64,000 bases of DNA from positions 27,312-91,311 of the forward strand of contig JAFLEA010000003.1 of assembly GCA_017302035.1 (NCBI GenBank). The letters are read 5' to 3'. Under the pieces are notes generated by a model that saw only the letters and a program-made list of their open reading frames with translations, was not told where the DNA came from and ran no database searches. Every line of letters begins with the position of its first letter. Positions within the stretch are counted from its first letter, which is position 1. Positions 38,713 to 41,951 of the stretch are shown piece by piece. This DNA is from Lysobacterales bacterium (lineage in GTDB: Bacteria; Pseudomonadota; Gammaproteobacteria; Xanthomonadales; Xanthomonadaceae). Made by a program: the position numbers and the translations under genes.

Positions 38713-38964
38713 ATCACTCCCGTTGCCGCGCGCAGGGCCGCGGCGATCCTGTCCCATGAACTCGGGAGTTTAGCGCAAGGGGCCGGGTGTCGACCGGCGC
38801 TACGGGGGCGTATGGGGTGCTTCTGGGCGTGACTGGATGGACCCTAGCCAAAATCAAACCGCCATGGAAATGCGGCGATGCAGCATTGCAATTGCAGGGG
38901 TCAAATAGATCGCAAGAACTGGGGCCAACCAATCATTGCCAGCGAGGCCATTTCGGTTGTCTGC

Positions 38965-39108
38965 CTACGCGCACTCCCCGGAGAGGGTGTTGTCCGTGTC
39001 CGCTGCCGCACGCCAGATGTCAATGAAATCGGCGCGGTAATGCCACGCGAAAAGGAATGCCAGAAAGACACTGACAATCATGATGTCCGGCTTCTTGAGC
39101 TTTGGCAT
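38965..39108 (-). CDS. 47-residue single-TM protein, candidate bacteriocin immunity factor
   Basis: A short gene (ATG 39108, TAG 38965) with GGGAGAT eight bases upstream. The sequence starts MPKLKKPD, a positively charged end, then one hydrophobic helix (IMIVSVFLAFLFAWHYRADF) and an acidic tail (RAAADTDNTLSGECA). It lies 54 nt after the second double-glycine peptide, on the same strand. Small one-helix membrane proteins at this place often protect the producer from its own bacteriocin. No family is recognised, so this role is inferred from position and topology only. Confidence 0.55.
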   Translation of the reverse strand: MPKLKKPDIMIVSVFLAFLFAWHYRADFIDIWRAAADTDNTLSGECA

Positions 39109-39132
39109 GGCGTCATCTCCCGGAAATACTGA

Positions 39133-39154
39133 GCCGCCCCCAATGGGAGGCGGC
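39133..39154 (-). terminator. Hairpin after the peptide genes
   Basis: GCCGCC and CCC pair with GGG and GGCGGC around an AAT loop with one bulged A. It lies 9 nt after the stop of peptide A and before the 47-codon gene. There is no T-run, so it may attenuate rather than fully end transcription, or stabilise the peptide mRNA. Confidence 0.45.
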
Positions 39155-39162
39155 GTTGAGTA

Positions 39163-39363
39163 CTAGTGATGCAGTTTGTAGTGAAGCAAGGAACCGGCAA
39201 TCATGCCACCCGGTCCGAGTGCCATTCCAAGCACTCCCTCGACCGAGCTCAACCCATGCCATGCCTCTCCGATGACCCTTCCGATGACCTGGTTGGCTTC
39301 GGAATTGGTTACGCCGTCCCCACCGGAGACGAACTGGATTTCATCTTGTGTCAGAGCTTTCAT
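39163..39363 (-). CDS. Double-glycine leader peptide A (class IIb bacteriocin-like)
   Basis: 66 residues. The ATG at 39363 has AAGGAG seven bases upstream. The leader MKALTQDEIQFVSGG (1-15) is a classical double-glycine signal cut after GG by the C39 peptidase of a dedicated ABC exporter. The 51-residue core starts DGVTNSEANQVIGR. It continues with an amphipathic/hydrophobic region rich in Gly and Ala, including G-MIA-G, a GxxxG helix-pairing motif, and ends in SLLHYKLHH. The gene begins 10 nt after peptide B. A pore-forming two-peptide bacteriocin is the best reading; a signalling peptide is the alternative. Confidence 0.75.
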   Translation of the reverse strand: MKALTQDEIQFVSGGDGVTNSEANQVIGRVIGEAWHGLSSVEGVLGMALGPGGMIAGSLLHYKLHH

Positions 39364-39373
39364 GGCCGTCTCC

Positions 39374-39544
39374 TTATGAATGCTCGGCATCGAGTTCGGC
39401 ATCCCGCGCCTTTGCGGCCCCACCGATTTCCACGAGCGAAGCCCTGTTGGCATACGCCCATGCAATCACTGCCCCGATTGTGAATGCAGTTCGTATAAAA
39501 CCACCACTGACAGTTTCACATTCATCCTGATCGATGCTACGCAT
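39374..39544 (-). CDS. Double-glycine leader peptide B (class IIb bacteriocin-like)
   Basis: 56 residues. The ATG at 39544 has AAGGAGG eight bases upstream. The leader MRSIDQDECETVSGG (1-15) matches that of peptide A at the key places (QDE, VSGG, same length). The 41-residue core begins with a hydrophobic helix (FIRTAFTIGAVIAWAYANRA) and ends in a charged tail (KARDAELDAEHS). Its TAA stop is directly followed by the ribosome site of peptide A, so both are one operon. The similar leaders with different cores suggest a pair exported by one transporter. Confidence 0.72.
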   Translation of the reverse strand: MRSIDQDECETVSGGFIRTAFTIGAVIAWAYANRASLVEIGGAAKARDAELDAEHS

Positions 39545-39567
39545 GGCTACTTCCTCCTTGAAGTATC

Positions 39568-39581
39568 GCGCCTGATGGCGC
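39568..39581. repeat. Short hairpin in the leader of the peptide operon
   Basis: GCGCC-TGAT-GGCGC, 23 nt before the ATG of peptide B and just upstream of its ribosome site. It may affect translation or be chance in GC-rich DNA. Confidence 0.3.
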
Positions 39582-39656
39582 AGGGCCAATCTAGACCCAC
39601 TGAGTCATCCAGATAACCTGTTTTTCGATGAGAATCATGTAGGAGAAACCTGACCC

Positions 39657-41951
39657 TCACCCCCTCCGCCCACCCTCCATCTGCTCGCGGATCTGCGCAT
39701 CCACCGCAGCGATGGCCGTCATGTTCAATATCCGCCGCGGCGTGGCGCTGCTGGTCAGGATGTGCACCGGCTTGCTGATCCCCATCAGGATCGGCCCGAT
39801 CGCCACACCCTCGGTCACCACCCGCACCAGGTTGTAGGCGATGTTGGCGGCATCCAGGTTCGGCAGCACGAACAGGTTCGCCCGACCCTTCAGCGTGCTG
39901 CCCGGCATCATCTGCTGGCGCAGCGCCTCGTCCCACGCCGTGTCCCCCTGCATCTCCCCGTCCACGTTCAACCTGGGCACCCGCTTGAGCAGCAGTTCGC
40001 GCACCTTGCGCATCTTCAGCGCTCCCGGCGTCTGGTGGCTGCCGAAGTTCGAGTGCGACAGCAACGCGATCCGCGGCTCGATCCCGAACAGCTTCAACCG
40101 GTACGACGCCTGCAGCGTCGCCTCGGCGATCTGCTCGGCTGTCGGCTCGTCCTGCACATGGGTGTCCAGGAAGAACCACACGCCCTGGTTGTTGATCACC
40201 CCGGTCATCGCCGAGGTCGACTGCACTCCCGGGTCCAGGTCGATCAGGCTGCGCACATACCCAAGCTTCTTGTGGAACCTGCCCACCACCCCGGTCAGCA
40301 GCGCGTCGGCCTCCCCGCGCGCCACCATCACCGCGCCGATCAGGGTCGGCCGCGAGCGCAGCAGGTTCTTGGCCGCCGACACCGTCACTCCGCGCCTGGC
40401 CGTGGCCGCGTAGTAGTGCTGCCAGTACTCGTTGAACCGCGGGTCGTCCAGTTGGTTGGTGATCTCGAAGTCCACCCCGGCCCGCATCCGCAGCCCCAGG
40501 CGCTCGATCCGCGCCTGGATCACGTCGGGACGCCCGATCAGCACCGGATAGGCCACCCCTTCGTCCACCACCGTCTGCACCGCCCGCAGCACCACCTCTT
40601 CCTCGCCCTCGGCGTAGGCGACCCGTTTCTTGTCCGAGCGGGCCCGGTCGTACACCGGCTTCATCATCAGGCTGGTCCGGTACACGAACTGGCCCAGCTT
40701 TTCCCGGTAGGCAGCCATGTCCTCGATCGGTCGCTCGGCGATGCCCGAGTCCATCGCCGCCTGGGCCACCGCGCTGGAGAGCTCCACGAGCAGGCGCGGG
40801 TCGAACGGCCGCGGGATCAGGTACTCCGGCCCGAAGCTCGGAGTTTCGTCGCCATAGGCGCTACCCAGGTCCGAGGCCTCGCGCCGGGCCAGGGCGGCAA
40901 TGGCGTGCACGCAGGCCACCTTCATTGCCTCGTTGATCCCGGTGGCGCCCACGTCCAGCGCGCCGCGGAACAGGTACGGGAAGCACAGGGCGTTGTTGAC
41001 CTGGTTGGGATAGTCCGAGCGCCCGGTGGCGATGATTGCGTCCGGGCGCGCGGCCTTGGCGTCCTCCGGCAGGATCTCCGGGTACGGATTGGCCAGGGCC
41101 AGGATGATCGGGTTGGGGGCCATGCTGGCCACCATTTCCGGCTTGAGCACCCCGCCGGCCGACAGGCCGAGGAAGATGTCGGCGCCGCGCACGATGTCCT
41201 CCAGGGTGCGCGCGTCGGTCTCGCGGGCGTAGCGGCGCTTGTCCGGATCCAGGTCGGTGCGTCCGCTGTGGATCACCCCGCTGCGGTCGTAGGCGGTCAC
41301 GTTTTCCTTGCGCAGGCCCAGCGATACCAGCATGTCCACGCACGACACCCCGGCCGCGCCCATGCCGGTGGTGCACAGCTTCACGTCCTCGATCTTCTTG
41401 CCTACCACCTGCAACGCGTTGACCACCGCCGCGCCGACGATGATCGCGGTGCCGTGCTGGTCGTCATGGAACACCGGGATGTTCATCCGCTCGCGAAGCT
41501 TGCGCTCGACCACGAAGCATTCCGGCGCCTTGATGTCCTCCAGGTTGATGCCGCCGAAGGTCGGCTCCAGCGAGGCGATGATGTCGACCAGCTTGTCCGG
41601 ATCGTTCTCGGCGATCTCGATGTCGAACACGTCGATCCCGGCGAACTTCTTGAACAGCACGCCCTTGCCTTCCATCACCGGCTTGCCGGCCAGCGGGCCG
41701 ATGTTGCCCAGGCCCAGCACCGCGGTGCCGTTGGAGACCACCGCCACCAGGTTGCCGCGCGCGGTCAGCTCGCTGGCCTGCTTCGGGTCGGCCACGATCG
41801 CTTCGCAGGCATAGGCCACGCCGGGCGAGTACGCCAGCGCCAGGTCGCGCTGGGTCAGCATCGCCTTGGTTGGCGAGACCTTGATCTTCCCCGGACGCGG
41901 GTGACGGTGGTAGTCGAGCGCAGCCTGCTTGAAGTCTTCTTGTTCGGACAT
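39657..41951 (-). CDS. maeB: NADP-dependent malic enzyme (two-domain type)
   Basis: 764 residues. The N-terminal 420 residues are a malic enzyme: Y41-S-P-G-V-A entry, [58 protein letters not shown] for the cofactor and [11 protein letters not shown]. The C-terminal part (about 435-764) is a phosphotransacetylase-like domain that regulates such enzymes ([40 protein letters not shown]). The enzyme turns malate into pyruvate and makes NADPH. Next to dctA and aceE it fits growth on C4-dicarboxylates feeding pyruvate to acetyl-CoA. Confidence 0.96.

What the first reader, a model, noticed from the sequence alone, without database searches (positions are those of the whole stretch)
38965..39544. 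A compact two-peptide bacteriocin-like operon with matching double-glycine leaders
Seen: two consecutive small genes (56 and 66 codons) with strong ribosome sites 10 nt apart. Both start with a 15-residue leader of the same plan, M-[K/R]-…-QDE-…-VSGG, and have different Gly/Ala-rich hydrophobic cores, one with a GxxxG helix motif. Known: class IIb bacteriocins (lactobin A/cerein 7B type) are two unlike peptides with shared double-glycine leaders, acting together as a pore, and need a C39-peptidase exporter. Inferred: this is a Gram-negative member of that plan. It is hidden between aceE and maeB in metabolic surroundings.
Basis: partly seen in the sequence, partly recalled or inferred. Interest (0 to 1): 0.85.

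Follow-up and report, generated by a model that had tools for sequence, protein, structure and literature searches.

The report
Two-peptide bacteriocin with look-alike immunity gene

Summary
The two small genes with matching 15-residue double-glycine leaders are real, on the minus strand (A 39544→39374, B 39363→39163). A third gene, C (39108→38965, 47 aa, no leader), lies in the same interval and was not described. A-B-C recurs in eight genomes found with the B profile; a ninth, divergent triad came with the C profile (its B assigned by position and leader). dN/dS is below 1. The genome holds a C39-peptidase ABC exporter with an HlyD partner on another contig; in Xanthomonas sp. XNM01 the exporter follows C directly. 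A secreted two-peptide bacteriocin of class IIb plan is well supported, but the lactobin A/cerein 7B cut-off is not met. New point: C is homologous to the mature core of A. A profile of C proteins scores nine of nine A cores at 18–37 bits; no control exceeds 7.2. Within loci C matches its own A better than chance pairing (4 of 5040 permutations, seven lineages), though not for the window's own pair. C also occurs without detected A/B in three of 17 genus members. Best reading: C is the immunity protein, an inner-membrane mimic of subunit A. Killing, immunity and mechanism are inferred. The maeB–aceE gap is a bacteriocin-cassette hotspot.

The parts
39374..39544 (-). gene A: 56-aa precursor; leader MRSIDQDECETVSGG, mature core FIRTAFTIGAVIAWAYANRASLVEIGGAAKARDAELDAEHS
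   Evidence: homologues in eight other genomes; dN/dS 0.29-0.41 among three relatives
39163..39363 (-). gene B: 66-aa precursor; leader MKALTQDEIQFVSGG, Gly-rich core with GxxxG motifs and conserved H, P, G positions
   Evidence: dN/dS 0.20-0.65 among three relatives
38965..39108 (-). gene C: 47-aa leaderless protein with one hydrophobic stretch, homologous to the core of A; proposed immunity protein
   Evidence: dN/dS 0.26-0.45 among three relatives
39133..39154 (-). RNA hairpin between B and C; a hairpin stands in this gap in all nine loci, mostly of unlike sequence
   Evidence: window z -1.81, 9 of 200 shuffles fold as well; the other eight loci z -3.2 to -5.8
39364..39373 (-). 10-nt A-B gap; SD of B overlaps the stop codon of A
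39553..39559 (-). Shine-Dalgarno site AAGGAGG of A

Best explanation
A-B-C is a bacteriocin operon. A and B are precursors of two different membrane-active peptides. The C39 peptidase domain of an ABC exporter encoded elsewhere in the genome cuts both after Gly-Gly and exports them with an HlyD partner and presumably a TolC-type channel (not searched for). Outside, the two peptides act together on the membranes of close relatives (inferred). C, the last gene, is the immunity protein: a leaderless homologue of mature A, kept in the producer's inner membrane with its C-terminal half in the periplasm (inferred from the basic N-terminus and one hydrophobic stretch). It would protect by imitating A, taking A's place in the A-B assembly or at A's target so that no working pore forms. 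Because C must match its own A, the two diversify together. Shown: the operon, its conservation, the exporter genes, A-C homology, A-C matching over seven lineages, C genes without detected A/B. Inferred: secretion, killing, immunity, mimicry.
For: A-B-C in eight genomes, and in G282 with a B known only by leader and position. C39 frames of 703-821 aa in 9 of 9 genomes tested (eight triad genomes and G239; G282 not tested); the exporter directly follows C in XNM01 and lies about 5 kb away on the same contig in G164 and G305. A core ~ C: hhalign probability 97.9; A vs B aligns only over the leader and adjoining residues, C vs B not at all. The 15-row C profile scores 9 of 9 A cores at 18.3-36.7 bits; of 10 other double-glycine cores the best reaches 1.9 (one not reported), of 5 B cores -0.6 (one not reported), of 900 shuffled A cores 7.2 (26 not reported). 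In whole-genome scans the first C profile reaches A in 8 of 8 triad genomes at E 2e-7 to 0.04. Matched A-C scores are equalled by 4 of 5040 re-pairings over seven lineages, the observed one included. In G282 the divergent A (..ERNNIRDFAEGVFEGYEEN..) has a matching C (..QRNNISSFVAGFLEGYEEN..). C without detected A/B in G239, G188, G272 (3 of 17 genus members). A spare C in XNM01 resembles the A of G282 (score 70). The 207 nt between C and aceE in the window hold only overlapping mechanical ORFs, so C is the only convincing local immunity candidate.
Against: No activity, secretion or immunity data. The window's own A-C pair is not its best match: it scores 39, and 7 of the 15 other C proteins score 43-64 with the window's A. 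Without G282 the permutation result is 4 of 720. In the tree 7 of the 8 A cores used form one group (support 0.76), so the A/C split is mostly old; only the G282 A joins a C (0.92). The G282 A was not reached by the C profile in the genome scan, nor its B by the B profile. The exporter is on another contig here, and C39 domains are common in the family (55 of 99 genomes, stand-alone ones included). C could be a third peptide or a helper.
Confidence: 0.62

Rival explanations
1. A two-peptide bacteriocin whose immunity lies elsewhere; C is a third active peptide or a helper (a leaderless co-toxin, or an inner-membrane chaperone that holds A for export).
For: C resembles A closely, follows A and B in the same direction and could co-assemble with A; a CPBP-type gene (PF02517; linked with bacteriocins by recall and by PMC5380434) sits in the same gap of G087 and G227.
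Against: C occurs without detected A/B in three genus members and as extra copies in XNM01 and G282, which suits immunity better; no CPBP gene was found in the window's gap.
Confidence: 0.2
2. A and B are secreted signalling peptides, not toxins, and C is part of signal control.
For: Double-glycine leaders also carry pheromones (recalled); B has a weak hit to pheromone VP1 (E 0.15, 12.3 bits, cut-off 85).
Against: The gap is shared with other double-glycine peptide and CPBP cassettes. Neighbouring genes were not annotated systematically, so a regulator nearby is not excluded.
Confidence: 0.08
3. A and B are RiPP precursors that need modification enzymes.
For: One B homologue has a sub-threshold hit to TigB (18.5 bits, cut-off 70).
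Against: In XNM01 the run is A, B, C, C39 ABC, HlyD, second C, with no room for an enzyme gene between.
Confidence: 0.05
4. Contact-dependent, surface-bound toxins of the Cdz kind rather than diffusible peptides (not exclusive with the best explanation).
For: Two adjacent double-glycine small proteins, GxxxG motifs in B, type I exporter (PMC5380434).
Against: A is 56 aa, below the 60-151 aa of the Cdz-like proteins listed there; C has one hydrophobic stretch, CdzI three predicted transmembrane domains.
Confidence: 0.25

Closest known systems
Class IIb (two-peptide) bacteriocins, e.g. lactococcin G, plantaricin EF/JK, lactobin A/cerein 7B (general knowledge; immunity proteins from passages of PMC6957408)
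   Same: Two unlike adjacent precursors with shared double-glycine leaders, hydrophobic cores with GxxxG, a small membrane protein gene beside them, a C39 exporter.
   Different: Gram-negative host; below the NCBIfam and Pfam cut-offs; the proposed immunity protein is a homologue of one toxin subunit, whereas immunity proteins of this class are described as having transmembrane domains and otherwise very little similarity to one another, some being of the Abi family.
Caulobacter Cdz system (CdzC/CdzD/CdzI; PMC5380434: abstract, passages and sections 13, 18, 32 seen)
   Same: Gram-negative, two small leadered proteins plus a small membrane immunity gene in one operon, type I secretion, glycine zippers.
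   Different: CdzC and CdzD have 86 and 84 aa; CdzI has three predicted transmembrane domains and no obvious homologues; here C has one hydrophobic stretch and is related to A; exporter not linked in the window genome's assembly.
Class II microcins (MccV type; passages of PMC13174018)
   Same: Double-glycine leader, peptidase-containing exporter plus membrane fusion protein, small immunity protein.
   Different: Single-peptide toxins (recalled); Pfam MccV model not met (13.6 bits, cut-off 27).

Membership tests
class IIb bacteriocin, lactobin A/cerein 7B (TIGR03949) | score above the NCBIfam cut-off | tested here: not met
   A 14.5 bits, cut-off 21.5; B not matched
class IIb bacteriocin, general plan | two unlike adjacent precursors with shared double-glycine leaders, conserved together | tested here: met
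   8 of 8 strong B hits among 395 genomes have A (and C) beside them
class IIb bacteriocin, general plan | C39-peptidase ABC exporter in the genome | tested here: met
   G000:C92, PF03412+PF00664+PF00005, HlyD beside it
class IIb bacteriocin, general plan | joint killing by both peptides and a protective immunity protein | not testable with these tools
   needs experiment
class II microcin (Pfam MccV) | score above the Pfam cut-off | tested here: not met
   B 13.6 bits, cut-off 27
Cdz-like system | toxin proteins of 60-151 aa with a leader ending in G[G/A/S] | tested here: not met
   B (66 aa) meets it, A (56 aa) is too short; both leaders end in GG
Cdz-like system | glycine-zipper motifs not interrupted by proline or charge | tested here: inconclusive
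   B has GxxxG motifs, one beside a proline; judged by eye
Cdz-like system | type I secretion genes within about 10 kb | tested here: inconclusive
   met in XNM01, G164 and G305; other contig in the window genome; 0.83 Mb away in G087
Cdz-like system | contact-dependent killing by surface aggregates | not testable with these tools
   needs experiment

The most novel reading that the evidence does not exclude
Immunity by subunit mimicry: the immunity protein of a two-peptide bacteriocin arose from (or gave rise to) one toxin subunit by loss (or gain) of the export leader, stays in the producer's membrane, and blocks assembly with the second subunit or the target; toxin subunit and mimic then co-diversify, and spare mimics are kept as protection against neighbours' variants.
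Probability: 0.45. Interest if true: 0.8.

Novelty: new variant of a known kind. Interest (0 to 1): 0.62.

Why it matters
How immunity proteins of two-peptide bacteriocins work is called a mystery in PMC6957408 (passage). Here a toxin subunit and its proposed immunity protein are homologous and seem to co-vary, which suggests a simple, testable mechanism (a dominant-negative subunit) and predicts from sequence which C should protect against which A. In ten paper searches (listings with abstract starts, and parts of three papers) I saw none describing such a pair; most subscription papers are not held, so this does not show that it is unpublished. The maeB-aceE hotspot also gives a place to look for more cassettes.

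Tried and rejected
Plasmid collection: no match for B of the window or of XNM01. Phage, viral-contig and E. coli collections were not searched. Rfam: no family in the window. Window A, B and C have no match above a curated cut-off in Pfam or NCBIfam and none in PHROGs at E 0.1. Among the 8 B members the best matches are TigB (E 0.0015), Bacteriocin_IIc PF10439 (E 0.0031; 4 of 8 members at E up to 1) and lactococcin G-alpha/enterocin 1071A (E 0.0074); bit scores were shown for the first member only. 8 A members: lactobin A/cerein 7B in 2, best E 0.022. 15 C members: NCBIfam best E 0.042; Pfam one holin-family match, E 0.0016.

B profile in 299 genomes of the order: outside the family only hits of E 0.002 and weaker. 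C profile in 312 genomes of the class: only the own genome at E 0.001. In such scans not every first-look candidate is scored (for example 15 of 28), so absence is not strict. Weak hits at E 0.001-0.1 lie mostly in long frames of other genes and were not followed; a few in short frames were read and are other double-glycine peptides. Rows left out: G288 and G305 from the seven-lineage test (close to G234), G288 from the tree, 4 of 9 B cores.

AlphaFold on C and A with three-row alignments gives helices only (C helix 6-46, pLDDT 79, pTM 0.37; A helices 6-32 and 34-55, pLDDT 80, pTM 0.41); no structural argument is drawn. The C39 protease at G000:C1 was set aside as exporter because its frame is only 337 aa. 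A hairpin before A, looked at in four loci, is uneven (z -0.1 to -3.8) and is not claimed.

Full report
WHAT IS THERE. On the minus strand between maeB and aceE lie three small genes, not two: A (39544→39374, 56 aa), B (39363→39163, 66 aa) and C (39108→38965, 47 aa). Each has a Shine-Dalgarno-like site; B's overlaps A's stop codon; 10 nt separate A and B and 54 nt separate B and C. A and B carry 15-residue leaders of one plan ending VSGG; C has none. A scan of the window for such leaders behind an SD site finds just this pair; 60 order-2 Markov sequences give 0.05 hits per 64 kb and no pair (pattern written with knowledge of the family).

CONSERVATION. Single-sequence searches of 198 family genomes found A and B side by side in the same two other genomes (G087, G172), and B in G164. 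A profile of B found 8 strong hits (E 7e-13 or better) among 395 family genomes; the other 19 listed hits have E 0.005 to 0.05. Reading the eight loci showed A-B-C in all: the window, G087, G172, G227 of the window's genus, and G164, G234, G288, G305 of a second genus. A ninth, very divergent triad, G282, came from the C profile; its middle gene is called B for its leader and place, as the B profile did not find it. Among G234, G288 and G305 dN/dS is 0.29-0.41 for A, 0.20-0.65 for B and 0.26-0.45 for C, which fits translated genes under constraint that change fast. Outside the family nothing strong was found (order, 299 genomes, B profile; class, 312 genomes, C profile).

EXPORTER. The window's genome has a C39-peptidase ABC transporter (PF03412, PF00664, PF00005) with an HlyD protein beside it on contig C92, while the window is on C49; its distance is unknown. 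A C39 protease on C1 with a 337-aa frame sits among repeat-rich genes. Nine of nine genomes tested (eight triad genomes and G239) have a C39 frame of 703-821 aa; any C39 domain occurs in 55 of 99 family genomes, so this agrees with export but does not prove it. Linkage is better evidence: in XNM01 the order is maeB, A, B, C, C39 ABC, HlyD, second C, and in G164 and G305 exporter and triad lie about 5 kb apart on one contig. In the single-contig genome of G087 they are 0.83 Mb apart.

C IS A LEADERLESS RELATIVE OF A. Profile comparison aligns C with the last 39 columns of A (probability 97.9); A and B align over the leader and adjoining residues; C and B do not align. Per locus, A core versus C scores 3.9 to 11 standard deviations above shuffles that keep the hydrophobic pattern, in eight of eight loci. 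A profile of 15 C proteins scores all nine A cores at 18.3 to 36.7 bits. Of ten other double-glycine cores that I chose the best reaches 1.9 (nine reported), of five of the nine B cores -0.6 (four reported), of 900 shuffled A cores 7.2 (874 reported). In whole-genome scans the first C profile picked up A in all eight triad genomes (E 2e-7 to 0.04), and the 15-row profile found the window's A at 1.1e-5, but not the A of G282 at E 0.01.

A AND C GO TOGETHER. Over seven lineages matched A-C scores sum to 422 against a mean of 286 for re-pairings; 4 of 5040 reach it. Without G282 it is 4 of 720; in the five lineages of the genus 1 of 120. G282 contributes most: its A and C share a motif (RNN...EGYEEN) seen in no other triad, and a spare C elsewhere in XNM01 resembles that A (score 70). 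The second C of XNM01 is the closest of all to XNM01's A (score 82). Against the idea: the window's own pair scores 39, below 7 of the 15 other C proteins (43-64), and the tree keeps 7 of 8 A cores in one group (support 0.76), with only the G282 A joined to a C (0.92). So the matching is in the data but rests on few lineages.

C WITHOUT A AND B. Of 17 held genomes of the genus, 8 have C: five with the triad, and three (G239, G188, G272) with another double-glycine peptide nearby but no A or B seen in the loci read, by the B profile beyond a leader-only hit in G239, or by the C profile, which also reaches most A. An A profile of its own was not run. G109 of another genus has a C hit and no A or B hit. 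In the genus of G164, 4 of 27 genomes have C at E below 1e-14, all four with triads. Genes kept without their toxin are what one expects of immunity genes.

RNA. Each of the nine B-C gaps folds into a hairpin; the sequences are unlike except among the close relatives G234, G288 and G305. Eight of nine have z from -3.2 to -5.8; the window's is weaker (z -1.81, 9 of 200 shuffles). Only G305 has a run of four U right after the stem, so I read the hairpin as an mRNA stabiliser or partial attenuator that sets the toxin to immunity ratio (inference).

HOTSPOT. In 12 of 17 genus members maeB and aceE could be placed on one contig in the same order. In 11 of these the gap holds double-glycine peptides, a C39 exporter or CPBP-type genes; the twelfth (G136) has a relative of a 277-aa unknown gene found there in others. 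The remaining five end at contig borders or are arranged otherwise. The window's gap is the smallest, about 0.9 kb, with the triad alone.

MECHANISM. See the best explanation. The mimicry step is a hypothesis from homology, matching and stand-alone C genes.

KNOWN SYSTEMS. By plan it is a class IIb bacteriocin in a Gram-negative host, close to the Cdz system of Caulobacter (PMC5380434: abstract, passages and sections 13, 18 and 32 seen), but it fails the lactobin A/cerein 7B and MccV cut-offs, and A is too short for the Cdz-like list. Immunity proteins of two-peptide bacteriocins are described as having little in common beyond transmembrane domains, with the mechanism unknown (PMC6957408, passages). 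A 2026 screen covers class II microcin candidates from Xanthomonas (PMC13174018, passages); I did not see the candidates' sequences, so overlap cannot be excluded.

Noticed in passing
window 38758-39659 and L036, L087, L094, L125, L126, L131, L169, L170, L172, L174: The maeB-aceE gap is a cassette hotspot in this genus: several unrelated double-glycine peptide families, CPBP (CAAX-type) proteins and, in G010 and XNM01, a C39 exporter with HlyD.
   Followed up: partly
L036:5937-6770 (minus), relatives in L087, L094, L125, L171: A 277-aa protein with no Pfam match (E 0.001) or PHROGs match (E 0.1) recurs in this gap.
   Followed up: no
L036:6807-7085, L074, L083, L087, L125: A second double-glycine peptide family with a conserved TCG(D/E)LR near the end, also in two copies beside the C39 exporter of G087.
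   Followed up: no
L087:11015-11236, L170, L172, L174: A third double-glycine family with a P-x-T-x-P stretch near the end, encoded close to a CPBP-type gene; a candidate toxin-immunity pair.
   Followed up: no
L002 (G000:C1:51000-51404): A C39-family protease without an exporter-sized frame beside Asn/Ala-rich repeat proteins, reminiscent of amyloid export gene clusters (recalled, not tested).
   Followed up: no
L041: G106 has two further double-glycine peptides between HlyD and C39 exporter genes, and a 57-aa possible membrane protein.
   Followed up: no
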